Shown here piece after piece: positions 1-31,262 of a stretch of 31,262 nt of DNA. The notes under the pieces were generated by a model. The model was not told where the DNA came from and did not search any database. It saw only the letters and a program-made list of their open reading frames with translations. The stretch is from a virus. The DNA is taken from positions 1-31,262 of IMG/VR virus record IMGVR_UViG_3300025769_000511, one strand, 5' to 3'. A program made the translations under genes and the position numbers. Within the stretch, counting starts at the first letter, position 1; the number at the start of each line of letters is the position of its first letter.

Positions 1-2
1 TC

Positions 3-200
3 AAGAACGCAGTACGTACAGTAGGTGATGACCTGTCTAGGTGTACGATGGTTGTTGTACGTGTGAAGAGAGAACATGAACGTACAAACAAATTCAAAAC
101 AACTCTTGCAAAACCATGCAAGGGATGCTATAGATGCATCGTAGAGTTTGGTCTACGTAAAGTTTATTACACAACAGAGAAAGGACTAGAACAGTTATGA
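3..200 (+). CDS. C-terminal fragment of a cytidine/dCMP deaminase-like protein (5' end outside window)
   Basis: An open frame runs from the window edge to TGA at 198-200 (65 residues visible). It contains PCKGCYRCIVEFGLRKVYY, which fits the second zinc motif of the cytidine/deoxycytidylate deaminase superfamily (PCxxC, then a helix, then G..xVYY). The upstream H/C-A-E motif would lie outside the window, so activity cannot be judged. In phages such enzymes turn dCMP into dUMP, the ThyX substrate; thyX lies 1.5 kb downstream on the same strand. The next gene starts inside the stop (ATGA overlap). Two extra cysteines around the motif are unusual. Family is seen; exact substrate is inferred. Confidence 0.6.
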   Translation, partial: KNAVRTVGDDLSRCTMVVVRVKREHERTNKFKTTLAKPCKGCYRCIVEFGLRKVYYTTEKGLEQL

Positions 201-511
201 TCAAGGGTAGCTTTAAGATTGATGACATTGGTGTGCAACTAGAGATGCACAACGATGGACTGTATGTTGCCTTCTATCTTGATGCAGATCATGGTGTAAA
301 ACCCGTCAAGAAAATTTCTTTTGATGATCTTGCTCTTGACTATGTAGATAATACAGGTGATATGTTCAGAGAGGAAGACATTGACTATCTGTGCTTTGAA
401 CTTGGATGTACAATACACATGCTAGAAACAAAGAGTAAGTCATTCAAACCAAAACTTAAAAAGTTATTGGAAGAAGAGTATCCTGACTCTGGCTTTACGG
501 ATACCTTCTAA
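197..511 (+). CDS. Hypothetical acidic protein, 104 aa
   Basis: I do not recognise this protein. It starts in an ATGA overlap with the deaminase fragment and ends two bases before the next ATG, so it sits in an operon. It is acidic through most of its length, with a predicted mixed beta/alpha N-terminal half (KGSFKIDDIGVQLEMHNDG looks like two beta strands) and a Lys/Glu-rich C-terminal tail. No cysteine motif, signal peptide or membrane segment is visible. A role alongside nucleotide or replication genes is only positional. Confidence 0.75.
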   Translation: MIKGSFKIDDIGVQLEMHNDGLYVAFYLDADHGVKPVKKISFDDLALDYVDNTGDMFREEDIDYLCFELGCTIHMLETKSKSFKPKLKKLLEEEYPDSGFTDTF

Positions 512-512
512 C

Positions 513-812
513 ATGAGAGTGTTGTCACATGATCTTAAAAATTTTGTTGACGATATCTCAAGCAGAGAACTTGTACATCTTGACCCAGTAAGAGTACGTA
601 TCTATATTCAAGGTTTGATAGACAGCGAGGAAAGAAGAATGACAGACTACAAGACAGGCGTTATTCCTAATCTTATCAAAGACTTGAATGAGTTGCTTGA
701 CTTAACGAATGACATAGTAGCTTCTAGCAAGCTACAGCATGATGACCTGTTCAAACTTGCAAAGGGTATATCAAATGTGAGAGACAGAATTTTTAAGGAG
801 TTTCTAGCATGA
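513..812 (+). CDS. Hypothetical helical protein, 99 aa
   Basis: The family is not recognised. The protein appears entirely helical, with heptad-like spacing of Leu/Ile (for example LIKDLNELLDLTNDIVA) that suggests a coiled coil or small helical bundle. It begins directly after the preceding stop and its own stop overlaps the ATG of the following 59-residue gene, consistent with translational coupling. No membrane segment or catalytic motif is seen. Confidence 0.7.
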   Translation: MRVLSHDLKNFVDDISSRELVHLDPVRVRIYIQGLIDSEERRMTDYKTGVIPNLIKDLNELLDLTNDIVASSKLQHDDLFKLAKGISNVRDRIFKEFLA

Positions 813-1667: not shown

Positions 1668-2365
1668 TGAAAGCTGAACTTATAAGTTACCTTGGCACTG
1701 ACTTGACCGTAGTCAATGCTGCTCGTGTGTCCTTTGATAAGGAGAGTGAATGGGAAGTAAACCATAGTGTACGTAAGGAACTGTCATCGAAGGATGCTGC
1801 ACTGATCCGTTACCTTGCCAAGCATGATCACTTCACACCGTTCACACACTGCATGATAACGCTGAGAGAAACTGTGCCTATCTTTGTTGCAAGGCAAAGG
1901 TTCAAACATACAATAGGATTTAGTTATAACGAAGTAAGTAGACGGTACGTTGATGACACACCAGAGTTTTACCTTCCTGATCTTTGGAGATTCAAAGCTG
2001 ATAATGTAAAACAAGGATCACATTATACCGGGTTAACGTCACAGGAAGTTAACGGTAAACTAAGAGACAAGGAAGAAGCTAATGGTCTTATCCTGTCTCC
2101 AGAAGAAATTTATTATGACTGTCTGAAAACATATAAGCAACTGCTCAGTATTGGAGTGTGTGCTGAACAAGCAAGGATGGTCTTGCCTCAGTCTATGTAC
2201 ACAAGTTATTATGTTACTGGTTCTCTCTCTGCCTTTGCCCGTGCATACAAGTTACGTATTGACAAGCACGCACAAAAAGAGATACAAGAACTGGCAGAGA
2301 GTTGGAATAACATCATCAAGGATTTATTTCCTGTATCATGGAAGGCACTAACAGATGGCAAGTAA
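1667..2365 (+). CDS. thyX: Flavin-dependent thymidylate synthase ThyX, 232 aa
   Basis: ThyX makes dTMP from dUMP using FAD, NADPH and methylene-tetrahydrofolate. Length fits the family. Residues 76-94 contain RQRFKHTIGFSYNEVSRRY, covering the region of the family signature (RHRX7S followed by NExSxRY), and the C-terminal part has EQARMVLPQSMYTSYYVTG and LRIDKHAQKEI, which are strongly ThyX-like dUMP/FAD-binding segments. The classical RHR triplet is replaced by KHT, a variant I associate with a subset of phage ThyX proteins but cannot confirm here. The ATG overlaps the stop of the methyltransferase gene. Together with the upstream deaminase and the ribonucleotide reductase it supplies DNA precursors. 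Confidence 0.95.
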   Translation: MKAELISYLGTDLTVVNAARVSFDKESEWEVNHSVRKELSSKDAALIRYLAKHDHFTPFTHCMITLRETVPIFVARQRFKHTIGFSYNEVSRRYVDDTPEFYLPDLWRFKADNVKQGSHYTGLTSQEVNGKLRDKEEANGLILSPEEIYYDCLKTYKQLLSIGVCAEQARMVLPQSMYTSYYVTGSLSAFARAYKLRIDKHAQKEIQELAESWNNIIKDLFPVSWKALTDGK

Positions 2366-2501
2366 GAAAGACATAGGAACTAAGTTGAAGTTAGAACTGA
2401 ACAAGCACCAACAGACAAGCATTGGTCATTCAGCTAACACTAACCCCAAGAATAAACACAAGCGTAAGAACTGGAAGAGATACAGAGGGCAGGGTAAATG
2501 A
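2355..2501 (+). CDS. Small basic protein, 48 aa
   Basis: ATG at 2355 lies within the end of thyX, and the frame stays open to TGA at 2499-2501, overlapping the next ATG at 2498. The protein is very basic (Lys/Arg/His in about a third of positions) and ends KRKNWKRYRGQGK. A KxYRGQG(K/R) ending is a pattern I associate with small phage proteins of unknown function. Nucleic-acid binding is plausible from charge only. Its start and stop overlaps with both neighbours support it as a real gene. Confidence 0.6.
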   Translation: MASKKDIGTKLKLELNKHQQTSIGHSANTNPKNKHKRKNWKRYRGQGK

Positions 2502-2674
2502 AGAACCTCTGGGAAAAGGACAGAAAGATTATCTTTCGAGAACTGTTGACAATGTATATGCAAGAAGGGTACAACAGAAAAGAAGCAAAGAAACTAGCAT
2601 CAATGGAAACAGAGGAGATTATGGCAGGTGACATGGCTTTTGTCGATGATTTACTAAACAACCTAGAGGAGTAA
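2498..2674 (+). CDS. Small hypothetical protein, 58 aa
   Basis: The ATG overlaps the preceding stop (ATGA) and the gene ends at TAA 2672-2674, five bases before the next ATG. The protein begins MKNLWEKDRKIIFREL and appears as two helices, basic in the first half and acidic in the second (ends DDLLNNLEE). No family is recognised. Its own stop region carries an AGAGGAG sequence about 10 nt before the next start, consistent with a ribosome binding site. Confidence 0.55.
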   Translation: MKNLWEKDRKIIFRELLTMYMQEGYNRKEAKKLASMETEEIMAGDMAFVDDLLNNLEE

Positions 2675-2679
2675 CCACT

Positions 2680-2838
2680 ATGAAAAAGATAGCCAAACAT
2701 CGTGATCCTAACTGGCGATGGATGCGTGCACTGGGACATAAGGTTGTCAAGGACAAGACACTTTACTCACGTAAACTTAAACACAAGGATAAAAAATATG
2801 TACCGTCTGGTGAACAAGACCAACAACAAGTCTGTTGA
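2680..2838 (+). CDS. Small basic hypothetical protein, 52 aa
   Basis: ATG at 2680 follows AGAGGAGTAACCACT, a good Shine-Dalgarno sequence with suitable spacing. The product begins MKKIAKHRDPNWRWMRALGH, is rich in Lys, Arg, His and Trp, and ends in a Gln run (DQQQVC). The Arg/Trp content suggests nucleic-acid contact, but no family is recognised. Its 3' end overlaps the next gene (start 2798) by 41 nt in another frame, so its final residues are less certain than its start. Confidence 0.55.
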   Translation: MKKIAKHRDPNWRWMRALGHKVVKDKTLYSRKLKHKDKKYVPSGEQDQQQVC

Positions 2839-2992
2839 TACAGGCACACTAGACGAGATGCAGGATGTTCTTGAGTCAATAAAGTCCTTGACTACCCATC
2901 TCAAGTACGCTAACAAGTTAAGCCGCAGTCAGCGTAAGCTCACTGTGTATGGCGAAAGAAACGAAACTGTTTACAGGATCGTAAAGCTATGA
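2798..2992 (+). CDS. Small hypothetical protein, 64 aa
   Basis: I chose ATG at 2798 because AAGGA lies 10 nt upstream (2786-2790). A start at 2702 would extend the protein back across the well-supported preceding gene. The 64-residue product (starting MYRLVNKTNNKSVDTGTL) reads like a short beta hairpin, a helix and a final beta hairpin (TVYGERNETVYRIVKL), which is a compact fold. The stop overlaps the ATG of the primase-helicase gene by four bases, so it is probably coupled to it. Function unknown. Confidence 0.6.
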   Translation: MYRLVNKTNNKSVDTGTLDEMQDVLESIKSLTTHLKYANKLSRSQRKLTVYGERNETVYRIVKL

Positions 2993-4638
2993 TAAAAACA
3001 GAGAGTCACGTAGTAAAGCGTGGTCCTTGCCCTGAGTGTCCATCCAGTGATGCATGTATGACGTACAGTGATGGTCATTCTTGGTGTTACAGTTGTTCAA
3101 CTTACTTTAAATCAAAGGATGACAGCATGTCAGAACTTCAACAGCAACACAACACGGTACGACCTATGACCATCAATGGCCAGATCACTAGCATTCCAGA
3201 CCGTAAGATTTCAGAAGCTACCTGTAAGAAGTACAACGTAAGAACAGTAAGAGACAATTCAAACAAGATCATTCAGCACTTGTATCCATACTATGATAAG
3301 GACAACAATCATGTAGGTGACAAGGTTCGTAATCTGCCCAAGGAAATTCGAGCCATTGGTAATGTAGGACAAGGTACACTCTTTGGACAAAACCTATTCA
3401 ATCAGGGTGGCAAGTACGTTACCATCTGTGAAGGTGAACTTGATGCACTTGCTGCATATGAAATGCTTGGCAGTAAATGGCCTGTCCTTTCCATCAAGGA
3501 CGGTGCTGCATCAGCACTACGCAACTGTAAAGCAAACCTAGAATACCTGTCTCAGTACGAGAACATTGTACTTTGCTTTGACAACGACGATGCAGGGCGT
3601 AAGGCAGCAAAGCAGGTTGCTTCTCTCTTTGAACCTAACCAATGCAAGATCGTGCACCTTGAGTACAAGGATGCATGTGAGTACATTCAGAACGGTAAGC
3701 GTGAAGAGTTTACTCGTGCATGGTGGAACGCTAAGATATATACACCTGCAGGTATTCTCAATCTTGCTGACATGGGTGACGCACTGTATGAGGAAGGTAA
3801 CTACAAGACCTGTCTCTATCCTTGGCACGGTATCAACGACAAGCTATATGGTATTCGTACTGGTGAACTGGTTACGTTCACTGCAGGTACAGGCACTGGT
3901 AAGTCAAGTGTGATCAGAGAACTGATGCACCATGTTCTGAACAACACAGAAGAAAACATTGGTGTTATCTCTTTGGAAGAGAATGTACGTTCAACTATCT
4001 TTCATCTCATGTCGGTGGAAGCTAACGCTCGACTGTACATCAGGGAGATACGAGAACAGTTCAGCCGTGAAGACCTGATTACATGGCAGCAAGCAACAGT
4101 AGGTACACGTAGATTCTTTGCCTTCGATCACTTTGGTAGCATGAAGACTGACGAGATACTTGGACGTATTCGCTACATGATCAAAGCCTTGGACTGCAAG
4201 TGGATATTCCTTGATCACCTGTCCATTCTTGTGTCAGGTCTGGAGGGTGACGATGAGCGTAGAAACATTGACAACCTGATGACCAAGCTACGATCCATCG
4301 TGGAAGAGACTAACGTAGCACTGCTGCTTGTCTCTCACCTACGCAGAGGCAGTGGTGACAAGGGACATGAAGACGGCAAGGAAGTTAGCCTTGCTCATCT
4401 ACGTGGATCACAATCTATTGCACAGTTGTCTGATGCAGTGGTAGCTATGGAACGTGATCAGCAATCAGATGATCCTAACATTTCCAACACTACTACCATT
4501 CGCGTGCTGAAGAACAGGTACGCAGGAGATACTGGTGTTGCATGCCATCTGTTCTTTAACAAGGACACAGGACGCTTGACAGAGGTAGACAATCTAGGCG
4601 ATAATGGGGAGGAAGATAACTTAGAAGAGGCACTGTAA
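2989..4638 (+). CDS. T7 gp4-like DNA primase-helicase, 549 aa
   Basis: The protein unwinds the replication fork and primes the lagging strand. An N-terminal zinc-binding domain has C14-x2-C17 and C33-x2-C36. A TOPRIM primase core has E148 (CEGELDALAA) and DNDDAGRKAA (198-207). A RecA-type hexameric helicase has Walker A GTGTGKS (300-306), Walker B KWIFLDH with D409, and H3 LLLVSH ending at H450. Length matches T7 gp4 (566 aa). The tail (534-549) is acidic, as in T7 gp4, where it contacts DNA polymerase. The stop overlaps the ATG of the polymerase gene directly, so the two replisome subunits are probably translationally coupled. Confidence 0.95.
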   Translation: MIKTESHVVKRGPCPECPSSDACMTYSDGHSWCYSCSTYFKSKDDSMSELQQQHNTVRPMTINGQITSIPDRKISEATCKKYNVRTVRDNSNKIIQHLYPYYDKDNNHVGDKVRNLPKEIRAIGNVGQGTLFGQNLFNQGGKYVTICEGELDALAAYEMLGSKWPVLSIKDGAASALRNCKANLEYLSQYENIVLCFDNDDAGRKAAKQVASLFEPNQCKIVHLEYKDACEYIQNGKREEFTRAWWNAKIYTPAGILNLADMGDALYEEGNYKTCLYPWHGINDKLYGIRTGELVTFTAGTGTGKSSVIRELMHHVLNNTEENIGVISLEENVRSTIFHLMSVEANARLYIREIREQFSREDLITWQQATVGTRRFFAFDHFGSMKTDEILGRIRYMIKALDCKWIFLDHLSILVSGLEGDDERRNIDNLMTKLRSIVEETNVALLLVSHLRRGSGDKGHEDGKEVSLAHLRGSQSIAQLSDAVVAMERDQQSDDPNISNTTTIRVLKNRYAGDTGVACHLFFNKDTGRLTEVDNLGDNGEEDNLEEAL

Positions 4639-6359
4639 TGGATGTAGTACTGGACATTGAAACTGATTCTCTTGACGCTACACTGGTGCACTGTATCGTA
4701 GCAAAGGACAGAGAAACAGGTAAGCATCATGTCTGGAAGGGTGATCAGTGCATTGATACATTTCCCCTCTTTGCTAAACGAGTGAACAAGTTTATAATGC
4801 ACAATGGGATATCGTTTGATGCACCCACTCTTAACAGACTGTTAGGTACACAGATCAAACTCTCACAGGTAGAGGACACATTGATACTGTCTCAACTAAC
4901 CGATCCTGTAAGAGATAACGGTCATTCTCTTGAGGCATGGGGTGAGAAACTTCAGTTCAATAAGATTGACTTTAAAGACTTTAGCCACCTGTCTGAAGAG
5001 ATGGTCACGTATTGTAAAAGAGATGTGGACATAACTGAACGGGTTTGGATTAACCTTCAACCAGACATACAAAAGATTGATCGACGTGCTATTGATCTTG
5101 AATACAAGATACGGGCGTTGGTTAGTCAGCAAGAAAGGAATGGGTTTACTCTTGATTTACAGAAAGCAACTAGCCTTATCGCACAACTACAGGACAAGTC
5201 ATTTGAGTTGGAACGAGAAGTTCAAACAAGATTTATTCCTATTCCTGTGGCGATTAAAGAAATCACACCTCGTTACAAAAAAGACGGCAGTCTTTCTTCT
5301 GTGGGTCTGCGGCATATACAAGACCCAACAACAGTTGCAGGACCACACACTTCGATTGACTACCAGACATTTAACCTTGCCTCCCGTCAGCAGATCGTTA
5401 GTCGATTAGTCAAGTGTGGTTGGCAACCAGATAAGTTCACTGAAAAAGGACATGCAATCGTAGATGAATCTGTGCTTCGCGGAGTTGATATCCCTGAAGC
5501 ACAGATGATTGCAGAATATCTTACATTAAAGAAACGTATTGCTCAGGTTCAGTCATGGGTTGATGCAGTACATGAGGACGGTAAAGTACATGGACAAGTT
5601 CTTACACTACGTGCTATCTCTGGTAGGATGGCACATCATTCTCCTAACATGGCACAAGTTCCTGCGTCTTACTCACCGTATGGTAAGGAGTGTAGGGAAT
5701 GCTGGACTGTTGGAGATGCAGCTAATGTTCTTGTTGGTTGCGACGCTTCTTCGCTTGAGCTACGAGCATTAGCTCATTACCTTAACGATCCTTCCTTTAC
5801 AAAAGAAGTTGTGGAAGGTGACATTCATACATCAAATCAAAAGGCAGCAGGACTTGATACACGTGATCAGGCCAAGACATTTATCTATGCCTTTATCTAT
5901 GGTGCAGGCGCAGCAAAGATAGGACAGATCGTTGGTGGTACATCACAGGATGGTCAGCGTCTGATAGATACGTTCCTTGGTAACGTCCCTGCTCTAGCTT
6001 TGCTAAGAGAAAGGGTTGACAGGGCAAGTCAAAGAGGTTATCTTAAAGGTCTTGATGGTAGATGGTTGAAGGTTCGTAACCAACATGCAGCAGTCAATCT
6101 TCTCATTCAAGGTGCAGGTGCAGTTATCTGTAAGCAGTGGCTAGTGGAGATAAATACTCTGGTGCGTAAGCATAATGTCAATGCCAAGTTAGTTGCGTCT
6201 ATTCACGATGAGTATCAGCATGAGGTATACAGACCACAGGCTGATAGATTTGGAGAGCTAACTAAACTAGCGATGAAACAAACAGAAAAGGTTTTGAAAA
6301 TAAAATGTCCACTAGACAGCGAATACAAGATAGGCCAGAACTGGTCAGAAACACACTGA
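4638..6359 (+). CDS. Family A DNA polymerase with 3'-5' exonuclease, 573 aa
   Basis: This is the replicative polymerase. Exonuclease motifs: DIE (D6, E8), NGISFD (D61) and YCKRD (Y125, D129). Polymerase motif A is CDASSLELR with D369; motif B RDQAKTFIYAFIYGAG has R409, K413 and Y417; motif C is SIHDEY with D524 and E525. Both activities should be intact. Y417 is the O-helix position equivalent to E. coli F762 and T7 Y526. The protein is shorter than T7 gp5 (704 aa), so a T7-style thioredoxin-binding insertion is unlikely. The insert between exonuclease and polymerase parts (about 200-260) has no CxxC motifs. Confidence 0.96.
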   Translation: MDVVLDIETDSLDATLVHCIVAKDRETGKHHVWKGDQCIDTFPLFAKRVNKFIMHNGISFDAPTLNRLLGTQIKLSQVEDTLILSQLTDPVRDNGHSLEAWGEKLQFNKIDFKDFSHLSEEMVTYCKRDVDITERVWINLQPDIQKIDRRAIDLEYKIRALVSQQERNGFTLDLQKATSLIAQLQDKSFELEREVQTRFIPIPVAIKEITPRYKKDGSLSSVGLRHIQDPTTVAGPHTSIDYQTFNLASRQQIVSRLVKCGWQPDKFTEKGHAIVDESVLRGVDIPEAQMIAEYLTLKKRIAQVQSWVDAVHEDGKVHGQVLTLRAISGRMAHHSPNMAQVPASYSPYGKECRECWTVGDAANVLVGCDASSLELRALAHYLNDPSFTKEVVEGDIHTSNQKAAGLDTRDQAKTFIYAFIYGAGAAKIGQIVGGTSQDGQRLIDTFLGNVPALALLRERVDRASQRGYLKGLDGRWLKVRNQHAAVNLLIQGAGAVICKQWLVEINTLVRKHNVNAKLVASIHDEYQHEVYRPQADRFGELTKLAMKQTEKVLKIKCPLDSEYKIGQNWSETH

Positions 6360-6874
6360 TATATCTTGAAGATACTGAAATTAAATTGTACACTGATATA
6401 GGTCAGGCACGTTATAATAGTAATAGAAAGAAAAGTGTAAAGGACACTGCTGCTAAACGAGACAAAAATGATCCTTATAAGTTTGATATCCTTGGTGTTG
6501 CTGGAGAGTTAGCACTGTACAAAATTATTGGTGAGTATCCGAATGGTGTTATGGATATTGGTATACGTTCAATGGAGAGAGGAACTGATAAAGGAGATTT
6601 ACTTCTTGACGGTCTTACTGTTGACGTTAAGACAACAGATCATGCCAACGGTAGACTACTTGCTGTAAGTAATAAGTGTCTTGGAGTTATTGATCTATTT
6701 GCCTTGGTCATAAAGATATCTGATGATTACTTTATGCTAAGAGGATTTTACCCATGCCATCTGCTCATCAAGGAAGAGAACTTCAATAGAGCAGACGGTA
6801 AGCTTGTTAGACCCTGTTACAATGTAGGACAAGAGGAGTTGATGGACTATTACGAAGCAGTAAAAAAGTTATAA
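6305..6874 (+). CDS. PD-(D/E)XK nuclease-like protein, 189 aa
   Basis: The gene overlaps the last 55 nt of the polymerase gene in another frame, with ATG at 6305. A catalytic arrangement of the PD-(D/E)XK fold is visible: E68 in GVAGELALYK, D98 in DKGDLLLDG and D107-V-K109 in TVDVKTT, with a following beta-alpha pattern. Such nucleases process phage or host DNA, but strand specificity cannot be read from sequence. Its position between polymerase and SSB suggests a replication or recombination role. It is followed by an intergenic region holding the SSB promoter, so it probably ends the first transcription unit. Confidence 0.7.
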   Translation: MSTRQRIQDRPELVRNTLIYLEDTEIKLYTDIGQARYNSNRKKSVKDTAAKRDKNDPYKFDILGVAGELALYKIIGEYPNGVMDIGIRSMERGTDKGDLLLDGLTVDVKTTDHANGRLLAVSNKCLGVIDLFALVIKISDDYFMLRGFYPCHLLIKEENFNRADGKLVRPCYNVGQEELMDYYEAVKKL

Positions 6875-6890
6875 CCACTAAAAAAAGTGC

Positions 6891-6919
6891 TTGACTCTGT
6901 GAATGTGATCAGGCATAAT
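6891..6919 (+). promoter_or_regulatory. Sigma70-like promoter upstream of the SSB gene
   Basis: TTGACT (6891-6896) and CATAAT (6914-6919) each match the consensus -35 and -10 boxes at five of six positions, and the spacer is exactly 17 nt. It lies in one of the few non-coding gaps, so transcription should start near 6926, about 55 nt before the SSB ATG. It indicates use of host RNA polymerase for this unit. Confidence 0.7.
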
Positions 6920-6940
6920 TCGCAAATCGTTGAATGAAAA

Positions 6941-6955: not shown

Positions 6956-6981
6956 GATTAAACCTAGAAAGGAAAACTAAC

Positions 6982-24261: not shown

Positions 24262-24279
24262 TCTTTATTATTGTTGTTG

Positions 24280-24861
24280 TTATTGACCACCAGCTCCTTG
24301 TGCTGCCATAAATCTTCTTTGCCTCTCTGCAAATAGCCTGTCTTCTTCTGCCCGTCTTTGTTCTGCAGTAGGTGCATTAGCTGCTGCTGCATCTTGATCT
24401 GCAAATCTTTTCTCCATTATTTCAAGTCTACGTAGTGTATCTCTCGCAGTAAGTTCGTCATCAAAATTAGTCCTAGATAATTCAGTTACATCTATTTGTG
24501 GACCGGGAGAAGTATAGCCAGTACTGCCATATGGAGACAGTGGAATACTTGCAAGTCCTGAAGAAGGTAATGTAGGTGTAGGTGTAAGAGGTGAAGAAAC
24601 ACCACCACCTTTATTACTCTGCACAGGTGTAGGTAATGGTTGTGCTACTACTGGATCAGAAGCAAATGTAGGAGAAGGCAGAGTAGCAGAACCACCACCT
24701 TTATTTGATGTACTTGGAAAACCTGCTGGACCTGCTGGTGACACTGGCAATGTAGACATACCTGCACCACGATTTACCAACTGTGGAGTTGCTGGTGCTG
24801 GTGTTGCTGGTACTGTTGATGGTGTTGTAGGTGTTGTAGTTACACCTCTTGCTCCTCCCAT
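24280..24861 (-). CDS. Pro/Thr-rich low-complexity virion protein, 193 aa
   Basis: The first 115 residues are dominated by Pro, Thr, Ser, Gly and Ala. They contain imperfect repeats: SNKGGG occurs twice about 31 residues apart, each followed by a Ser/Pro/Thr run, and GAGMSTLPVSPAGPAG resembles them. The last 75 residues (from about DVTELSRTNFDDEL) are a charged helical segment ending QGAGGQ. It probably is an extended linker protein with a helical anchor, within the virion block. The start overlaps the stop of the 1002-residue gene (TAATG). No function is assigned. Confidence 0.65.
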   Translation of the reverse strand: MGGARGVTTTPTTPSTVPATPAPATPQLVNRGAGMSTLPVSPAGPAGFPSTSNKGGGSATLPSPTFASDPVVAQPLPTPVQSNKGGGVSSPLTPTPTLPSSGLASIPLSPYGSTGYTSPGPQIDVTELSRTNFDDELTARDTLRRLEIMEKRFADQDAAAANAPTAEQRRAEEDRLFAERQRRFMAAQGAGGQ

Positions 24862-27800
24862 TATACTAACCCTCCTAAACCTTGCTGTGCATTAAGCTGT
24901 CTTTGTTGCTTTTGTGTTCCAAATGAATCTTGACGTATACCTTTAATAAAATTATCTAACTGTTCTGATCCTGCATTAGAAGAACCATTACCAAGCATTG
25001 CTACCACATCTGCAGGTATAACATATTCGTCACGACTTAGCAAGGCTTTGTCAGGATTGTTGCCCTCTACTTCAAAGAGTATTTGATCTGACATACCATC
25101 ACCATTACCAACTACCTGACCTTCAAAGTACTGACCAATATCACCACCTTGTGCATAACCTAATGCACCACGTACTCTATCTAAAAATGAACTTTGATCA
25201 GGAACAGCTATTTCTTGTCCTTGTCTAATAACATTAGGATTAGAAATATTTTTATTTGCTTCAAGCAACTCATCTAAAGACATACCTTGTTGTTTTGCAA
25301 TAGCAGATAAAGTATCTCCTGATTGTACTTCATATTGTTTATCTTCACCACTAAGTATATTTCTTAGTATGGAAAGTATTCCTGCGTCATTTTCTGTATC
25401 AGATAACTTAGCCATTTGAGTTTCTTTTTGTACAGTGGGCATACCTGAATAAACAGAACTAAAAGGTTTATCATCATACATGTCTTTAGTTGTTAAATCA
25501 GATAGTTTTTTTAGTTCACTAGAAACAAGTTCCATACGAGGTTTAATTCCTGATCTTTTTCTTTCCTCTGCTTTTCTATATTCTTCATTATTTAAAAATT
25601 CTTTTCCTGCTTCATCATACTTTCCAGCATTAATTAATTTTATAGTTTCAGGACTACCACCTAAACTTCCTCTAAACCATTCACCTACCATAGCTGTTTT
25701 TAAACTTTGCGGAAAAGAATTAAAATCTTTTATTTTATTTTTAATTTTAGGTAGTCTTTTTCTTATATCGCTTCTTAGTAATAAGTCAGCTTGCTCTTCT
25801 GTTATTTCTTTATCTGTCATTTTTACATTTTCTGTATGACCATAACCTATAGTTGGCTTGTCTCCTTTTGTAGGTATATAGGGCTTGGCTTTAAACTTTT
25901 CTTTTTCTTTTAAAAAAGAAACATAAGGTTCAATACTTTCTTCTTGAGGAATATCTCCTCCCTCTCTTAACCCTACCAACCCACCTGTGTTAAACCCAAA
26001 GCTAGTACCAGAAACAAAAGAAGAAGGAGCGGCTGACTGACCCGGTGGAGTTGCATATGATTCTGGTCCTTGTGCTAGTTGTCGTCCAATAACTTGACCT
26101 ACATTTTGCATCTGCTGAAACATTTGCTGATTACCTGTAGGTTGTTCAATAAATTGTTGTCCACGTGACATTGCCTGATCACGTTGTAATAGTTCGTCCT
26201 GCCGTGCACGTTCAGATATCTGTTGTTCCTGCTGTTGTAGCACTGGTGGTGGTGCTGATGGTTGTTGTACTGCTGGTGATAGTTGTGACTGCAATACTCC
26301 CTGTTCAGGTGTGCCGCCTTCTTGCAATGCAACAAGACCGCCAGTATATTTTGTGTATAGTCCTCTATCTGCTGTATCAAATGAGTTTAACCCACCAGAA
26401 GAAGAATTAGGAATTGAAACATTTTGATTTACAAATTGTATAGCTTCTGGATTATTTCTTAGAAGTAAACGAGAAATCATAGCCGTAACACCACCTTTAC
26501 TTTCTAACTCATCAAAAAATCTATTAGATATATTTTGTTGAGATTGAGAAGTATCATTACTTACTCTCTGACTTTCTGGTGTTATAGACATTTGAGTTAA
26601 TTCAGGCTGATCAATAAATTGTTTAGTTTGTCCACCCTCTGCCAAACCTACAAGTCCACCCTGTGCAGCATAACGATACTGTTCTGATAGTGGTTGATAA
26701 CCACCCTCTAGTGCCATGCGAAGATATTCTTCTGATGAACGAGCAGGTGACTGTGTACCACCAGCAAGTGTACGTTCACGTGGTACATAGGATGGACCTA
26801 ATGTTGGTTCTTGTATATCTAATTCTTCATATTCTGGTGGTTGCATTAGTGTAGTTAAAGCTCCACCAATATAGGTTTGAGGATCACCAAGAACTTGACC
26901 TGCTCTTTCTGATATAGTAATATCAGATGGCATAAATCCTTTATCAATAGCTGCTTGTCTTGAAAGCACATCTCCAGTTTTTAAAGGTTCAGCACCAAAA
27001 AATTTAGATATTGCACCGGGTTTAGTTGTTTCTCCAGTATATTTAAAATAAGTTTCGCCGGGACTTATTCCTTTACTAATTAGAGATGTATCTATTGTTG
27101 GAGCAGGTAAAACAGTAGCAGTTGTAGCCGCAGCAGGTATTTCTCCAAACATACCACCACCAAAATTACCACTTCCAGATAAAGAGATTGATCCTACTTG
27201 TGTAGTTAAAGGCATACTAGCAGCACTTGCAGCTTGCATACTTTGTCCTGCTGCACCACTTAAAGTTTCTCCAAACATACCTCCACCAAATGTTTCTGCA
27301 CCGGGAGCAACACCTTGCTCAAAACCAGCTGGTGAAAGTCCCTGCATAACTCCTGCAGTAACACCTGACATTAAACCGCCTAGTGCAGCTTGTCCCGGCT
27401 TTTGTCCAGCCGCAAGACCACCCACAAATGATCCAATAGCCGTTCCTATACCGGGAAGAATCATAGTACCAATTGCACCACCTATTGCAGGAAGAAGTGA
27501 TCTAAAATTAAATGCTTCTGGTAGTCCTGTATCAGGATTGATTGTTAATGTACCAAGAGATGCAAGTCCCCGTAGTTCATCAGGACGTACATGCAACAAC
27601 ATACTGTCACCATAACGTCCACGGCTTGCAAGTTCATTTGCTACAGGTGCTAGTGGTGCATTCTGTATACTACCACCATCAGCTACTGCAGCAATACCAC
27701 GTGCCTGTGGAATACCTGAGTAAGGATTAAACTCCAGTCCACCCATACTTCCCATAGCTGCAATGTCCTTTGTAGGAACATAGGCTAGTTGTGTGGCAGG

Positions 27801-27869
27801 GTTGTTGTCTCGCATATTAAGTAAACGAGTAAGTCCTGCTGCTGGTGCATTGGGGTTTATATAATTCAT
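24861..27869 (-). CDS. Modular virion protein with lysozyme and LysM domains, 1002 aa
   Basis: Order: two related N-terminal segments ending NPYSGIPQA (48-56) and NPDTGLPEA (111-119); a Gly/Ala hydrophobic stretch (126-155); a disordered middle with three GGLVxLxEGG motifs (404-413, 510-519, 629-638); a GH24-type lysozyme (about 645-795) with likely catalytic E657 and T673 in KPTIGYGHT; a LysM domain (YEVQSGDTLSAIAKQQGMSL, 846-865 onward); and a C-terminal module with GDGMSD (922-927) and DEYVIPADVVAMLGNGSS (947-964). The lysozyme makes this a likely wall-degrading virion protein used on entry. The GDGMSD/EYVIPADVV module recurs in phage virion proteins I know, without a known role. Confidence 0.82.
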   Translation of the reverse strand: MNYINPNAPAAGLTRLLNMRDNNPATQLAYVPTKDIAAMGSMGGLEFNPYSGIPQARGIAAVADGGSIQNAPLAPVANELASRGRYGDSMLLHVRPDELRGLASLGTLTINPDTGLPEAFNFRSLLPAIGGAIGTMILPGIGTAIGSFVGGLAAGQKPGQAALGGLMSGVTAGVMQGLSPAGFEQGVAPGAETFGGGMFGETLSGAAGQSMQAASAASMPLTTQVGSISLSGSGNFGGGMFGEIPAAATTATVLPAPTIDTSLISKGISPGETYFKYTGETTKPGAISKFFGAEPLKTGDVLSRQAAIDKGFMPSDITISERAGQVLGDPQTYIGGALTTLMQPPEYEELDIQEPTLGPSYVPRERTLAGGTQSPARSSEEYLRMALEGGYQPLSEQYRYAAQGGLVGLAEGGQTKQFIDQPELTQMSITPESQRVSNDTSQSQQNISNRFFDELESKGGVTAMISRLLLRNNPEAIQFVNQNVSIPNSSSGGLNSFDTADRGLYTKYTGGLVALQEGGTPEQGVLQSQLSPAVQQPSAPPPVLQQQEQQISERARQDELLQRDQAMSRGQQFIEQPTGNQQMFQQMQNVGQVIGRQLAQGPESYATPPGQSAAPSSFVSGTSFGFNTGGLVGLREGGDIPQEESIEPYVSFLKEKEKFKAKPYIPTKGDKPTIGYGHTENVKMTDKEITEEQADLLLRSDIRKRLPKIKNKIKDFNSFPQSLKTAMVGEWFRGSLGGSPETIKLINAGKYDEAGKEFLNNEEYRKAEERKRSGIKPRMELVSSELKKLSDLTTKDMYDDKPFSSVYSGMPTVQKETQMAKLSDTENDAGILSILRNILSGEDKQYEVQSGDTLSAIAKQQGMSLDELLEANKNISNPNVIRQGQEIAVPDQSSFLDRVRGALGYAQGGDIGQYFEGQVVGNGDGMSDQILFEVEGNNPDKALLSRDEYVIPADVVAMLGNGSSNAGSEQLDNFIKGIRQDSFGTQKQQRQLNAQQGLGGLV
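25956..25985 (-). repeat. GGLVxLxxGG motif, third copy in the 1002-aa protein
   Basis: Encodes GGLVGLREGG (residues 629-638), directly before the lysozyme domain. Confidence 0.85.
26313..26342 (-). repeat. GGLVxLxxGG motif, second copy in the 1002-aa protein
   Basis: Encodes GGLVALQEGG (residues 510-519), followed by a Pro/Gln-rich stretch. Confidence 0.85.
26631..26660 (-). repeat. GGLVxLxxGG motif, first copy in the 1002-aa protein
   Basis: Encodes GGLVGLAEGG (residues 404-413) and lies about 106 residues before the second copy. Confidence 0.85.
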
Positions 27870-27871
27870 TA

Positions 27872-28078
27872 TTACAGTACCTGTTTTGGATTTAGATAGT
27901 TTGATTGTATTTGTGTCATGTCAGCATGTAACGTATTAGGATTATTATACAATGGAGTTTGTGAATATGCCATAGGTGAACCTGTAGTATACTCCGGTGG
28001 CTGTACTGATCCAGTATTTACATTCTGTATGTAATTACTACTCTGCAAGAATTGTGCCATTTTATTTATATCATACAT
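27872..28078 (-). CDS. Small hypothetical virion-block protein, 68 aa
   Basis: I chose the ATG at 28078 because it overlaps the stop of the upstream gene (TAATG), like several junctions in this block; an in-frame ATG at 28096 would add six residues within the upstream gene. The product is rich in Asn, Gln, Tyr and Pro (for example MAYSQTPLYNNPNTLHADM), polar and probably extended, without cysteines, signal or membrane helix. It ends two bases before the 1002-residue gene. No family recognised. Confidence 0.6.
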   Translation of the reverse strand: MYDINKMAQFLQSSNYIQNVNTGSVQPPEYTTGSPMAYSQTPLYNNPNTLHADMTQIQSNYLNPKQVL

Positions 28079-28353
28079 TAGTGAAAGTCCACCCATCCTG
28101 TTCCACTTACATAACCTCTATACTTACCTGCACTTGCAGCAAATACTACATCTCCATTAGCAGGTCTTCCTATAGAAGCTACTGTGACTACTGTTAAAAC
28201 TTTAGAAGCAGGTGAGTTATCAACCTGTGTATCCCTTGCCTCAAGAAGAAATTTTAGTTCTCCTGCATATGAAACAAGATAGTTGTATAACTTCTCTACA
28301 TCATTCTTATCTAAGTGCGCATACTGTGGTAGTTCAGGATAAAGAAAAGCCAT
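28078..28353 (-). CDS. Hypothetical virion-block protein, 91 aa
   Basis: The N-terminal half is helical (KNDVEKLYNYLVSYAGELKF) and the C-terminal half beta-rich, ending GRPANGDVVFAASAGKYRGYV and SGTGWVDFH. The Gly-Trp ending resembles short beta motifs in phage tail and fibre-associated proteins, but I recognise no family. It is joined to both neighbours by TAATG overlaps, which supports the start and suggests coupled translation with the tail hub protein upstream. Confidence 0.65.
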   Translation of the reverse strand: MAFLYPELPQYAHLDKNDVEKLYNYLVSYAGELKFLLEARDTQVDNSPASKVLTVVTVASIGRPANGDVVFAASAGKYRGYVSGTGWVDFH

Positions 28354-30227
28354 TAGCGTTTACCATCTGGTTGTAGTCCTAGTCTAACACTACCCCACTT
28401 CCATGAAGTACCTGAGTCAGCAGTAGATACTCTAATGTTTGCCTGTCTTCCACGTGCACGAAAGTCAATCTTTTGTGTAGCATTATTAATAGTGTATGGT
28501 CCTTTTTCAATTGCACCACCAGCAGGATACATTTTAGTATTAATTGAAAATCTAATTGATCCTTGATTTATTGTATAGTCAGGAACAATTTTATTCATAA
28601 ACATAATCTGATCGCCATCTTGAATGTCAAAGTCTGCAGACTCAAGAAAGGAAGACAATGCTTGACCATCACCAGTAAAGACAGATGTAGGTTCATTGTC
28701 CCAGATATATGTATCAGCAGTAGCAGAAACTCTTCCTGTTGCAATTGTATTTAGGAATACATCACTGTTGTTAAATGTTGTATAGAAAGACGTACCATAA
28801 TACCATGTTTCTTCCATAAAGTTGTAGATAACGTAGGCATTAGGTTCAGAAGAGTTAGCTGTAGGATACAACCATATAATTTCGTGAAACTCTGAATTAA
28901 CTCCTGCAAAGACTTTATCTTTGTTAGTCATATTAAAGTCATCATAAAGATAACGTCTTACTGTGCAATCTAGTTTTCTTACTCTTCCATCAAAGATAAA
29001 GAAGTTATTGTCACTCATCCAAAAACTTGCACCGTCCACATTAATTGCTGCATGTGGACCAATTAATCCACAATTAGAACCTAGTTGTGTAAGGTTAAAT
29101 ATAAATGGTGGACCAACAAACTGCAAAGCATACATTGCTTTATCTGTCCATACATGAATAGCATTACGAGAACGAATACCACCCTGAATCTGTGTGCCAT
29201 CAATTAACTGCAGTTCACCAGATGTAGAAGAAACTGAAGGTATCCAGTTAGAATAATCTTCCTGATCTGACCAACGGATAAGAAGAGGATTGAATGTAGA
29301 AGTACCATACTCTTCTGTTCCAAAAGCAATAACATGACGATCATTAGGTGAAACAACAATACTATTTATTTGAGAGGGAGCAGTTCCTACAATTGAAGTT
29401 CTTACTGGTGCAGTACTTGCATCTGCATCCCAGTGAAGTAAGTTACTTCCACGACGAACAGCAAGAAGGTCTTCACCAAAGTTATCCAAAGACCACTGCG
29501 TTGCAAGAAAAGTAATATTAGAAGCGGTAGCAGGTTCATTCCAAGCACGCACTCCTGTTGTAGAAGCACCAGCATTATATACTCCTGCACCATAACCTAA
29601 ACCTTGAATTGGATTTAGTTGTCCTGTAGCAAGAAGAAAACCTGCTACACCATGACCTTGATTTGTCTCTGTACTTGTAGCAATGCTTGCAACACTAATA
29701 TAAAAACGATTTAATCCTGATACACTCACAGCTTCAAAGGTAGGTCCACCATATGCTGAAGTAGAAAAGTCTATACCATTTGTACCAAATCCATTGATAG
29801 ATGTATTAGAAAAATTAATAAAGTCTCCAATACTAACGCCGTTATTATTAAGGCTTACCTCAATAAGATTAGAACCTGCACTGGTAGAGAAGCTACCCTG
29901 TGTTCCAATATCACCAATACTAACTGTACTTACAATTGGTGTAATGTCATAAGGCCAATCATTGTAAAGAAGATATAGTTTCTTTTCTGTACCTACAGAT
30001 AGTAGTTTAATTGTATTATTATTAATCCAAGTCTTTAAGTCTCTGCCTATACCAAGTATATCATTGGTAGTATGCTTTTGATAACCTCTAATATTCTCAG
30101 GTTTACCTTCTCTAAATCTTACACGATCACAATCGTACCATGAACCTTCCTCAGAATACTGGGTTGACTCACGGCGAATACCGGGTCTAAAATTAAATTT
30201 AGAAAGGGTTGATGCAGTAGAAGACAT
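28353..30227 (-). CDS. Tail hub / DNA-stabilisation protein, 624 aa
   Basis: The protein is beta-rich and starts with RPGIRRESTQYSEEGSWYDCDRVRF-like features (RPGI at 13-16, DRVRFREGKPENIRGY about 34-49) followed by repeated short strands such as NDRHVIAFGTEEY, IRWSDQEDYSNW, RSRNAIHVWTDKAMYALQF and SFWMSDNNFFIFDG. That pattern of sheet repeats fits beta-propeller tail hub proteins of the P22 gp10 / T7 gp12 kind that close the portal and hold the tail. It ends WGSVRLGLQPDGKR. It lies between a tail-fibre-like gene and small late genes. Placement between these two families is uncertain. Confidence 0.75.
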   Translation of the reverse strand: MSSTASTLSKFNFRPGIRRESTQYSEEGSWYDCDRVRFREGKPENIRGYQKHTTNDILGIGRDLKTWINNNTIKLLSVGTEKKLYLLYNDWPYDITPIVSTVSIGDIGTQGSFSTSAGSNLIEVSLNNNGVSIGDFINFSNTSINGFGTNGIDFSTSAYGGPTFEAVSVSGLNRFYISVASIATSTETNQGHGVAGFLLATGQLNPIQGLGYGAGVYNAGASTTGVRAWNEPATASNITFLATQWSLDNFGEDLLAVRRGSNLLHWDADASTAPVRTSIVGTAPSQINSIVVSPNDRHVIAFGTEEYGTSTFNPLLIRWSDQEDYSNWIPSVSSTSGELQLIDGTQIQGGIRSRNAIHVWTDKAMYALQFVGPPFIFNLTQLGSNCGLIGPHAAINVDGASFWMSDNNFFIFDGRVRKLDCTVRRYLYDDFNMTNKDKVFAGVNSEFHEIIWLYPTANSSEPNAYVIYNFMEETWYYGTSFYTTFNNSDVFLNTIATGRVSATADTYIWDNEPTSVFTGDGQALSSFLESADFDIQDGDQIMFMNKIVPDYTINQGSIRFSINTKMYPAGGAIEKGPYTINNATQKIDFRARGRQANIRVSTADSGTSWKWGSVRLGLQPDGKR

Positions 30228-30234
30228 TTATATT

Positions 30235-31152
30235 TTATCCAAAAGATGAAACAAAAACTGTATCTATAGCTGACACGCCTCTTACATTATATACAAGAAG
30301 GTCTACTGAATTTATTGAAGTAGACATTGTAGGTGCTGTACCACCAATAAACTTAAATGAATCTCCAAAGGCTAACGTCCTGCTTCCTGTACCATCCTGA
30401 ATAACATAGATATGACCTGTCTGACCTAATGCAGTATTGGTAGGATTTTCTAGTGTTCTATTGTCAGTAAGCGTAACAAGGAAGTTTGTACCTGAAGACA
30501 GATCAAGAGCAATAGAAGTTGCATCAGTAAGAGTAACAGGTGTACCTGCAACCTGCCCTGTAAATGTTGCCTTACCTACAGTTTCAATTGATGTAGTAAC
30601 AACATTAAATGCAGCATTGCTAACAAATGCTTCAGTAGCAGAAATACTTGTAGCAAACCCTACAGCACTTGAGAATGCATTCACATTAGTAAATGTATTG
30701 CTTCCTGAAATAAGAGCAAAGGTAGAACTAAGATCAAAACCTTGTGCATTTAAACCATATACTGAAACACCATCAGAAATAATGTGTGCAATTGCACCTT
30801 CAGATATTGCAGAACCTGCACCTGCATCAGTTTTAAAAGTAATTGTTGCAGAATTTTCTCTTGTTGTTTTATCGTTAACAATAAAACCTTTTGACTCTTC
30901 AGGTATAATTACATTAAGGTTTGCAGAGACAGTACCTGATAATTCAAGGAAAGCTGACCTAGACTGATCTGCTGTACCATCAGCGGCTGTTAGAGTTACA
31001 TCTGCAGAAGATACAATTACAGTAGTGTATGCAGCAATAGCATCATCAACCAGATCAATTACATTCTGATTGAGAATTGCACCCCAGCTATTAGGGTTTT
31101 CTCCATCGCCCTGTTTTTCTAATCTGATGCGAGTAGTATATGTACTTGCCAT
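30235..31152 (-). CDS. Tail-fibre-like protein, 305 aa
   Basis: The N-terminus TYTTRIRLEKQGDGENPNSW and then GAILNQNVIDLVDDAIAAY is a block I associate with phage tail-fibre or fibre-anchoring proteins. The rest is Ser/Thr/Ala/Val-rich with alternating strands (ALISGSNTFTNVNAFSSAVG, TLTDNRTLENPTNTALGQTGHIYVIQDGTGSRTLAF-type sheet), typical of trimeric fibres. No enzymatic or chaperone domain is visible. AAGGAAAG lies six bases before the ATG. Its place ahead of the tail hub gene agrees with a tail role; the host receptor cannot be inferred. Confidence 0.78.
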   Translation of the reverse strand: MASTYTTRIRLEKQGDGENPNSWGAILNQNVIDLVDDAIAAYTTVIVSSADVTLTAADGTADQSRSAFLELSGTVSANLNVIIPEESKGFIVNDKTTRENSATITFKTDAGAGSAISEGAIAHIISDGVSVYGLNAQGFDLSSTFALISGSNTFTNVNAFSSAVGFATSISATEAFVSNAAFNVVTTSIETVGKATFTGQVAGTPVTLTDATSIALDLSSGTNFLVTLTDNRTLENPTNTALGQTGHIYVIQDGTGSRTLAFGDSFKFIGGTAPTMSTSINSVDLLVYNVRGVSAIDTVFVSSFG

Positions 31153-31163
31153 TCTTACTTTCC

Positions 31164-31262
31164 TTATAAAGAGTTATGTTTTTGTTGTGCTACTGTTCCA
31201 GCAATTAGAATGTAACCAAAAAAATTTTTACTTATGACTGACTGTACTTTTAATACTACATT
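31164..31262 (-). CDS. C-terminal end of an unidentified late gene (5' end outside window)
   Basis: On the - strand an open frame enters at the window edge and ends at TAA (31164-31166), giving 32 residues ending FFGYILIAGTVAQQKHNSL. The stop lies 11 bases before the fibre gene ATG, which fits the tight spacing of the block, and the short frame contains no internal stop. It is too short to identify. It could also be part of a non-coding gap, though the other junctions here are all short. Confidence 0.45.
   Translation of the reverse strand, partial: NVVLKVQSVISKNFFGYILIAGTVAQQKHNSL

What the first reader, a model, noticed from the sequence alone, without database searches (positions are those of the whole stretch)
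1..31262. CCWGG appears to be completely absent from all 31 kb, while CCSGG is retained
Reading the whole + strand for CCAGG and CCTGG (a palindromic class, so one strand suffices) I found none. CCCGG/CCGGG occurs 16 times: starting at 2028, 9859, 10405, 18393, 18498, 18564, 19407, 23025, 24503, 26041, 27016, 27058, 27301, 27394, 27451 and 30181. Near-misses CCTGC, CCTGT, CCTGA, CCAGT, CCAGA and CCAGC are all common. At roughly 40% G+C a random sequence would hold about 30 CCWGG. Total loss of only the W form is what selection against a CCWGG-specific enzyme (EcoRII-type restriction, or Dcm-type methylation with its mutation cost) would leave. It suggests that hosts of this phage often carry such a system and that the phage escapes by losing sites rather than by a visible anti-restriction gene.
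Basis: partly seen in the sequence, partly recalled or inferred. Interest (0 to 1): 0.78.

Follow-up and report, generated by a model that had tools for sequence, protein, structure and literature searches.

The report
Marine phage purged of CCWGG sites
This marine virus of bacteria has lost every copy of a five-letter sequence that a class of bacterial DNA-cutting enzymes attacks, and its choice of codons shows how; viruses of marine roseobacters show the same loss and some roseobacters carry matching enzymes, so this looks like a clear new case of a known escape strategy.

Summary
The 31,262-base record has 0 CCWGG, and 16 CCSGG at the listed positions. Expected CCWGG: 38.9 or 45.5 by Markov models, 26.5 by codon shuffling with 0 of 500 shuffles as low. 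It is the most depleted of 128 palindromic motifs scanned. Codons show selection on DNA: Pro-Gly pairs are halved (15 against 29.0) and the survivors use CCC/CCG (15 against 2.5 expected). They make 15 of the 16 CCSGG, so 'retained CCSGG' is mostly the escape product. CTWGG/CCWAG are not in excess, against Dcm decay. Best reading: avoidance of CCWGG-specific Type II restriction. Nine of ten hand-picked Rhodobacterales phages have CCWGG at 3% of expectation or less. Dcm-Vsr-EcoRII-like cassettes occur in roseobacters, some on plasmids. EcoRII- or MvaI/BcnI-family nucleases are in 44 of 394 genomes of one roseobacter's family against 20 of 385 class-wide. The phage's host and the enzymes' specificity are inferred. 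The phage's own nuclease-like gene does not track the loss. Known kind; strong example.

The parts
1..31262 (.). Whole record: 0 CCWGG (CCAGG or CCTGG)
   Evidence: expectation 38.9-45.5 Markov, 26.5 codon-shuffled
2028..30185 (.). 16 CCSGG sites (first base 2028, 9859, 10405, 18393, 18498, 18564, 19407, 23025, 24503, 26041, 27016, 27058, 27301, 27394, 27451, 30181); 15 of 16 are in-frame CCS|GGN Pro-Gly codon pairs, read as synonymous escapes from CCWGG
   Evidence: Positions; frames
4638..6359 (+). DNA polymerase A gene, the marker used to collect relatives
   Evidence: phrog_17 E=4e-133; DNA_pol_A E=8e-52
6305..6874 (+). Small PD-(D/E)XK-like nuclease candidate (DUF5843) just after polA; considered and rejected as the cause of the CCWGG loss
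   Evidence: DUF5843 E=7.5e-8; invariant T-D-x-G-D and D-V-K columns in 8 aligned sequences; model pLDDT 82.6; best Z 7.4 to I-Ssp6803I, 6.9 Eco15I, 6.6 DpnI, 6.2 Hjc; no association with CCWGG state
7778..8629 (+). Cas4-domain exonuclease; most of its relatives in the phage collection are phages of marine Alphaproteobacteria
   Evidence: phrog_1990 E=5e-48; 39 records by tblastn, 29 of them named Roseobacter, Siovirus, Pelagibacter, Lentibacter, Celeribacter or Puniceispirillum phages
8604..9053 (+). T7-type endonuclease I
   Evidence: Phage_endo_I E=4.5e-39
9658..11343 (+). Ribonucleotide reductase, 77% and 74% identical to roseophages CRP-3 and CRP-212; main clue to the host
   Evidence: next best hit 49.8%

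Best explanation
The phage has been purged of CCWGG by restriction. Its hosts, most likely marine roseobacters (Rhodobacterales), often enough carry Type II restriction systems that cut unmethylated CCWGG but not CCSGG: EcoRII-type cassettes, some on plasmids, and enzymes of the MvaI/BcnI family, both found together with the same kind of Dcm-like methylase. A genome that keeps a site risks being cut on entry, so mutations that destroy the site are fixed: synonymous where possible (CCC/CCG instead of CCA/CCT before Gly; no NCC codon before TGG or AGG; no NNC-CWG-GNN), by amino-acid change otherwise. SHOWN: loss, codon footprint, CCSGG excess, the same loss in most of the Rhodobacterales phages looked at, presence of the cassettes in that host group. 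INFERRED: that the host of this phage is a roseobacter, that these enzymes cut CCWGG, and that they are the selecting agent.
For: 0 CCWGG against 26-46 expected. Of 386 Pro codons 339 are CCA/CCT, yet the 15 before Gly are all CCC/CCG. Since CCW before GGN is itself a CCWGG, the independent statement is 15 S-coded Pro-Gly against 2.5 expected, p = 7e-8, with Pro-Gly pairs 15 against 29.0. 0 of 147 TGG/AGG codons follow a codon ending CC; 0 of 292 CWG codons are flanked by C and G. Deamination products not in excess. Rhodobacterales phages, observed/expected: CRP-3 1/113.7, CRP-212 1/109.6, CRP-902 0/99.7; CRP-403 0/61.8, CRP-804 1/94.0, SIO1 1/79.3; P12053L 2/82.3, CRP-6 1/64.1, DFL12phi1 0/111.9 with CCSGG 57/32.6. 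RNR 77% to CRP-3, host Rhodobacteraceae FZCC0040. Dcm-like methylase, Vsr and an EcoRII relative side by side (EcoRII-C E=2e-64; EcoRII structures 3hqg/1na6 at E 1e-36 to 3e-36); EcoRII relative at 91-95% identity on plasmids of Pseudosulfitobacter, Roseinatronobacter and Paracoccus (the last over 71% of its length, at the record's start). EcoRII-C or MvaI_BcnI in 44 of 394 family genomes against 20 of 385 class-wide, p = 0.0026; 32 of 47 genomes with the Dcm-like methylase also hold one of these nuclease families. The stretch I take for the target-recognition domain is conserved with E. coli Dcm.
Against: The host is not known. Only 11% of the sampled family genomes carry either nuclease family (8% if a Dcm-like methylase is also required: 32 of 394), some of these matches are fragments and three carry stop codons; this seems low for near-total loss in 9 of 10 phages. 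CCWGG is also absent from the 30 kb read of a SAR116 phage (HMO-2011, 0/46.5), nearly absent from a pelagiphage (HTVC168P, 2/26.7) and absent from an uncultured phage of unknown host (KM23-C739, 0/24.7), so the signal is not exclusive to roseobacters; the roseophage CRP-1 keeps 11 of 46.7. EcoRII needs multiple sites for efficient cleavage (PMC4081073, passages), so total loss is more than EcoRII alone would demand. The N-terminal half of the EcoRII-like protein was not matched to EcoRII. Of two MvaI_BcnI proteins compared with solved structures, one matched only R.BcnI (E=6e-5; BcnI cuts CCSGG, recalled) and one matched nothing, so some of the 20 may cut CCSGG. The methylase scan started from a Rhodobacterales protein, so finding mostly Rhodobacterales at its top is partly built in. 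The cultured phages were picked by hand.
Confidence: 0.72

Rival explanations
1. The phage itself encodes a CCWGG-specific nuclease without a methylase (the PD-(D/E)XK-like ORF after polA, or another gene) that shreds host DNA, and its own genome had to lose the sites.
For: The window's slot ORF folds like restriction enzymes and resolvases at middling Z; other relatives carry dissimilar ORFs there that look nuclease-like by eye, though Pfam gave them nothing above a cut-off; a self-encoded cutter would explain an absolute loss.
Against: No association: 3 of 9 relatives with a strong homolog (E <= 1e-10) keep CCWGG, against 24 of the other 71 (p = 1). Caveat: several of the 71 loci end in or near polA, so a homolog could be unseen, and some have a weak match. 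L031, L032, L047, L062 and L079 show no ORF of 100 aa or more between polA and the SSB-like gene and have 0 CCWGG. DFL12phi1, of the Schitoviridae, shows the same loss. A different phage gene was not excluded.
Confidence: 0.07
2. Dcm-type methylation of the phage in its hosts, with 5-methylcytosine deamination, eroded the sites without restriction.
For: Dcm-like methylases are present in the inferred host group; 15 of 47 genomes with one show neither nuclease family.
Against: CTWGG + CCWAG 70 against 86.2 by codon shuffle. The surplus is in CCC/CCG codons, which are not deamination products. A purge to exactly zero is hard to reach by mutation pressure alone (inference).
Confidence: 0.04
3. 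The selecting enzymes are CCWGG-cutting restriction systems, but of a host outside Rhodobacterales (for example SAR116 or another marine proteobacterium), with a different enzyme set.
For: HMO-2011 (SAR116) lacks CCWGG in the 30 kb read; polA is nearest to pelagiphages (HTVC103P/104P 48%, HTVC115P 49%) and ThyX to other phages (57%), so the genes are mosaic; host not shown.
Against: RNR 77% to a roseophage, first non-roseophage 49.8%; among the phages looked at the loss is most consistent in roseophages.
Confidence: 0.15
4. A compositional or codon-usage accident.
For: G+C 40% makes GC-rich 5-mers rare; four other complementary pairs of 5-mers are absent too.
Against: 0 of 500 codon shuffles as low; P(0) 1e-17 to 2e-20 by Markov, 3e-12 by the codon mean; the embedded 4-mer CAGG is over-represented (152.5 against 125.3), though CCAG is under-represented (80.5 against 114.6).
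Confidence: 0.01

Closest known systems
Restriction-site avoidance by prokaryotic viruses (Rusinov et al. 2018, PMC6286503; outline with abstract, and a term search of the main text)
   Same: Loss of orthodox Type II sites, more in non-temperate phages; complete or almost complete elimination in about one-tenth of viral genomes by their abstract
   Different: A term search of its main text found none of CCWGG, EcoRII, Dcm, marine or Roseobacter. Here the codon-level escape products are read out and a candidate enzyme pool is named
T7/T3 CCWGG scarcity and EcoRII resistance (recalled, not fetched)
   Same: T7-like phages with few EcoRII sites
   Different: Here exactly zero sites, and the inferred hosts are roseobacters
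EcoRII (Type IIE, CCWGG) and its neoschizomer MvaI (PMC4081073, passages)
   Same: The host cassettes hold an EcoRII-C domain beside a Dcm-like methylase and often Vsr; other genomes hold an MvaI_BcnI nuclease with the same methylase type
   Different: N-terminal domain not matched to EcoRII; specificity not tested
Roseophages SIO1 and CRP-403
   Same: CCWGG at 1 and 0
   Different: They lost CCNGG as a whole (1/97.6 and 0/94.7), so an enzyme that also cuts CCSGG or CCGG must be in play there

Membership tests
Type II restriction-site avoidance | Site significantly rarer than composition and codon use predict | tested here: met
   0 against 26.5 (codon) and 38.9-45.5 (Markov)
Type II restriction-site avoidance | Near-miss sites not depleted; escapes synonymous where possible | tested here: met
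   CCSGG 16 against 4.2; neighbours with the first or last base changed 450 against 397.5; Pro-Gly codons
Type II restriction-site avoidance | Host carries a restriction system of that specificity | tested here: inconclusive
   Host unknown; inferred host group has candidates in 44 of 394 genomes
Type II restriction-site avoidance | Virion DNA unprotected (no modification, no anti-restriction protein) | not testable with these tools
   None recognised in 33 gene models by Pfam, but the record looks like a fragment
Dcm/5mC deamination decay | Excess of CTWGG and CCWAG | tested here: not met
   70 against 86.2
EcoRII-type restriction system (host side) | EcoRII catalytic domain next to a Dcm-like methylase | tested here: met
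   EcoRII-C E=2.2e-64 in L102 and 2.8e-65 in L119; that ORF family in 16 of 24 loci examined
EcoRII-type restriction system (host side) | Methylase related to Dcm in the part that reads CCWGG | tested here: met
   Region aligned and conserved with E. coli Dcm; that this stretch reads the target is recalled, not tested
EcoRII-type restriction system (host side) | N-terminal effector domain of EcoRII | tested here: inconclusive
   No match reported to it in Pfam or by sequence to 1na6, whose matched part begins at residue 192
EcoRII-type restriction system (host side) | Cuts CCWGG and not CCSGG | not testable with these tools
   Needs biochemistry
Phage-encoded CCWGG nuclease (slot ORF) | Gene present where CCWGG is absent, absent where it is kept | tested here: not met
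   3 of 9 with and 24 of 71 without a strong homolog keep CCWGG; some of the 71 do not show the slot
PD-(D/E)XK nuclease (ORF 6305-6874) | Restriction-endonuclease-like fold | tested here: inconclusive
   Z up to 7.4 to several such enzymes, none at 8 or more; best Foldseek E 0.12; invariant D-V-K columns

The most novel reading that the evidence does not exclude
Phages of marine Rhodobacterales, across unrelated phage families, record one shared immune pressure: a mobile pool of CCWGG-specific systems (EcoRII-Dcm-Vsr cassettes, some on plasmids, plus MvaI-type cassettes) that moves so freely between genera that a phage can hardly afford a single site in any host. W-specific CCWGG loss would then serve as a sequence-only marker of phages that live in this host pool. 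Because only about one host genome in nine carries a recognised nuclease, the data also leave room for a further, unrecognised CCWGG nuclease common in these bacteria.
Probability: 0.3. Interest if true: 0.66.

Novelty: new member of a known kind. Interest (0 to 1): 0.5.

Why it matters
Site loss is a known phage strategy, but here the footprint is clean enough to read the enzyme's specificity (W, not S) from codons alone, and it leads to a concrete host-side cassette. If the link holds, motif loss could help assign hosts to uncultured marine phages, and the frequency of one mobile restriction system could be tested against the purge seen in the phage community.

Tried and rejected
Slot ORF as a self-encoded CCWGG nuclease: first idea (note); rejected by lack of association. 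It has no tblastn match in the phage collection. The structural search gave only middling matches, and absence of a closer match is no evidence.

Dcm decay: rejected.

One ancestral loss: the polA tree kept 75 of 93 candidate rows (rows with under 5 expected sites, or with a short or no polA match, were dropped) and needs at least 14 changes of the 'none' label, against a shuffled mean of 22.8 with 0 of 500 as low. The trait is clustered but switches often; the window's near relatives L004, L006 and L007 have CCWGG.

Strict host association: weaker than hoped. Rhodobacterales phages (10) against other named hosts (7): 18 sites of 863 expected against 346 of 426; rank test p = 0.007, with related phages inside the groups, hand-picked records, and CRP-1, HMO-2011 and HTVC168P against the simple rule. 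KM23-C739 (0/24.7) was left out because its host is unknown. Twelve of the 17 records were read only in part (30-50 kb stretches).

No DNA-level match of bases 1-25,000 of the window in the phage collection. Literature: CCWGG + phage + avoidance (8 papers, all listed), restriction site avoidance + marine + phages (1), three of roseobacter/phage/restriction-modification/CCWGG (15 of 106 listed), avoidance + recognition sites + others (12 of 39 listed), roseophage + EcoRII (2), Roseobacter + plasmid + EcoRII (0): judging by the listed titles and abstract starts, none describes this loss. The library holds only open-licence papers.
Full report
WHAT WAS CHECKED. The window is a whole virus record of 31,262 bases. 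It carries a T7-like replication block (ThyX, primase-helicase, DNA polymerase A, Gp2.5-like SSB, Cas4-type exonuclease, endonuclease I, ribonucleotide reductase) and a small terminase subunit on the + strand, and a block of ORFs, taken as structural and mostly without Pfam matches, on the - strand. It is probably an incomplete genome: no large terminase or portal was recognised among the 33 gene models scanned against Pfam; only 10 proteins, all of the + strand, were scanned against PHROGs.

OBSERVATION. Expected CCWGG: 38.9 by maximal-order Markov, 45.5 by a trinucleotide model, 26.6 (300 codon shuffles, minimum 15, two genes mis-framed) and 26.5 (500 codon shuffles, minimum 16, corrected). 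CCWGG has the lowest p-value of 128 palindromic motifs. Other palindromes are lost too: AGATCT 0 against 13.8, CTTAAG 0 against 10.7, TCTAGA 0 against 14.5, AACGTT 0 against 9.4, AAGCTT 1 against 15.2, CAGCTG 2 against 14.8, each with 0 of 500 shuffles as low. GATC (114 against 102.2) and GGWCC (16 against 19.4) are not clearly depleted.

HOW THE SITES WERE LOST. In 33 gene models, Pro codons are CCA 137, CCT 202, CCC 26, CCG 21; before Gly they are CCC 10, CCG 5, CCA 0, CCT 0. Because CCA or CCT before GGN is itself a CCWGG, the zero is part of the observation; what is independent is that 15 Pro-Gly pairs survive in S-ending codons against 2.5 expected (p = 7e-8), while Pro-Gly pairs as a whole stand at 15 against an expected 29.0. 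Hence both routes seem to have been used: synonymous change and amino-acid change. 15 of 16 CCSGG are such Pro-Gly codons, which explains the CCSGG excess (16 against 4.2 by codon shuffle). In the other frames, 0 of 147 TGG/AGG codons follow a codon ending in CC, and 0 of 292 CTG/CAG codons are flanked by C and G. Deamination products of methylated CCWGG are not in excess (CTWGG plus CCWAG 70 against 86.2). The agent therefore tolerates CCSGG and acts on the DNA as such.

RELATIVES. 80 IMG/VR loci with related polymerases were fetched (the best 80 of at least 600): 53 of 80 have 0 CCWGG and 27 have some, though many are short with low expectation. Pooled, the 53 hold 66 Pro-Gly pairs, necessarily all in CCS codons (other Pro: 3962 W, 666 S); the 27 hold 34 W and 12 S (other Pro: 1911 W, 241 S). 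A polymerase tree of 75 rows shows that loss is clustered but needs at least 14 changes. The repertoire of lost motifs differs: some low-GC relatives have 0 GATC (for example L016 0/53.5, L070 0/50.0).

PHAGES WITH KNOWN HOSTS. CCWGG observed/expected: Rhodobacterales hosts CRP-3 1/113.7, CRP-212 1/109.6, CRP-902 0/99.7; CRP-403 0/61.8, CRP-804 1/94.0, SIO1 1/79.3; P12053L 2/82.3, CRP-6 1/64.1, DFL12phi1 0/111.9, CRP-1 11/46.7. Others: HTVC104P 29/39.4, HTVC168P 2/26.7, Slicky01 30/82.4; HTVC027P 67/54.6, DSL-LC04 190/130.2; HTVC008M 28/45.8, HMO-2011 0/46.5. The roseophages come from several groups: Autographiviridae (CRP-403, CRP-804), Zobellviridae (SIO1, P12053L), Schitoviridae (DFL12phi1), the HMO-2011 type (CRP-1, CRP-3; PMC6918029, passages). 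DFL12phi1 shows the same W-specific pattern (CCSGG 57/32.6), while SIO1 and CRP-403 lost CCNGG as a whole (1/97.6, 0/94.7). These records were chosen through protein hits and by hand, are partly related to each other, and twelve of 17 were read in part; the rank test (p = 0.007) is only indicative.

HOST OF THIS PHAGE. Not known. The ribonucleotide reductase is 77% and 74% identical to CRP-3 and CRP-212 (host Rhodobacteraceae FZCC0040), next 49.8%; the Cas4-type exonuclease has 39 relatives, 29 in phages named after marine Alphaproteobacteria including four of Pelagibacter (best identity 44%); the polymerase is nearest to pelagiphages at 48-49%; ThyX is nearest to other phages (57%). A roseobacter is the best guess.

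HOST-SIDE ENZYMES. E. coli Dcm found a Dcm-like methylase on a Paracoccus tegillarcae plasmid (51.6%). Scanning genomes with that protein gave 80 loci (of 153 relatives); of the top 23 (79% identity or more), 21 bear names of Rhodobacterales genera or Rhodobacteraceae (placement of genera recalled; the query's origin favours this). In 24 loci examined (the plasmid and these 23) lie Vsr (9 by my ORF rule, which also missed the annotated Vsr of the plasmid) and a 407-aa protein (16 loci) that is an EcoRII relative: EcoRII-C E=2.2e-64, EcoRII structures 3hqg and 1na6 at 8.6e-37 and 3e-36. It sits on plasmids of Pseudosulfitobacter, Roseinatronobacter and Paracoccus at 91-95% identity. In 394 genomes of the family of G001 (a Sedimentitalea, L105), EcoRII-C occurs in 24 and MvaI_BcnI in 20, together 44; in 385 genomes drawn class-wide 12 and 9 (one under the family cut-off), together 20; p = 0.0026, or 0.003 without the genomes I already knew to be positive. 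The Dcm-like methylase (E <= 1e-40) is in 47 of 394: 20 with EcoRII-C, 12 with MvaI_BcnI, 15 with neither. Methylases beside EcoRII- and MvaI_BcnI-type enzymes and E. coli Dcm share the stretch I take for the target-recognition domain. Against: one MvaI_BcnI protein, from a genome without the Dcm-like methylase, matched only R.BcnI among solved structures (E=6e-5), another matched none, so some of these may cut CCSGG.

WEIGHT OF THE EXPLANATION. Restriction avoidance of a W-specific CCWGG cutter is well supported; which enzyme and which host are inferred. EcoRII needs more than one site (PMC4081073, passages), so a purge to zero suggests that single-site cutters, or long repeated exposure, took part (inference). 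The 11% prevalence in hosts is the main loose end.

REJECTED RIVAL. The ORF after polA is a PD-(D/E)XK-like protein, but homologs do not track the loss (3 of 9 against 24 of 71 keep CCWGG; in some of the 71 the slot is not in the fetched stretch).

PLACE IN WHAT IS KNOWN. Restriction-site avoidance is an established phage strategy; complete or almost complete elimination is reported for about one-tenth of viral genomes (PMC6286503, abstract). This is a new, unusually legible member of that kind, not a new mechanism. A Paracoccus study found methylases with partial protection of CCWGG among other sites (PMC3925955, passage). The searches named in Tried and rejected listed no report of CCWGG loss in roseophages.

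Noticed in passing
window 1-31262; L083, L084, L086, L098, L100: AGATCT is absent from the window and from several marine alphaproteobacterial phages although GATC is still common (SIO1 0/25.2, CRP-403 0/18.2, CRP-804 0/24.4, P12053L 0/23.0, CRP-6 0/14.4); others keep it (CRP-3 16/31.2, DFL12phi1 33/24.9). No cause sought.
   Followed up: partly
L016, L017, L025, L026, L056, L057, L070, L082, L085, L087, L101: GATC is exactly 0 in a set of relatives, pelagiphages and the HMO-2011 stretch (HTVC104P 0/149.6, HMO-2011 0/95.7).
   Followed up: partly
L063, L066, L070, L077, L082, L096: CASTG (CACTG/CAGTG) is nearly or wholly absent (HTVC104P 2/65.0, HTVC008M 2/85.2): a lost 5-mer class that I did not match to an enzyme.
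   Followed up: no
L089, L090, L086: CGCG is 0 of about 105 in CRP-3 and CRP-212; GTAC 0/118.3 and GGWCC 0/79.9 in CRP-804.
   Followed up: no
window 6305-6874; L002 11671-12243; L042 4631-5104; L045 5527-6012; HNH-like ORFs (by eye) in L027, L029, L042, L049: The slot just after polA is a turnover point: dissimilar ORFs that look nuclease-like by eye, and HNH-like ORFs, occupy it in different relatives; Pfam gave nothing above a cut-off for the L002, L042 and L045 ones.
   Followed up: partly
L002 and L006: Two relatives lie in contigs of 100 and 107 kb, larger than the cultured phages with the most similar polymerases (37-65 kb); larger relatives or assembly repeats.
   Followed up: no
window 24861-27869 (-): 1002-aa protein with phage lysozyme and LysM domains.
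   Followed up: no
window 13437-15743 (+) and 11947-12420 (+): 768-aa protein with MptE-like and Methyltransf_24 domains, and an Hsp20 family protein.
   Followed up: no
L095, L102-L124: The roseobacter cassette often carries a Vsr repair gene, as E. coli dcm does; its methylase is 79-97% identical across many genera, which suggests recent spread.
   Followed up: partly
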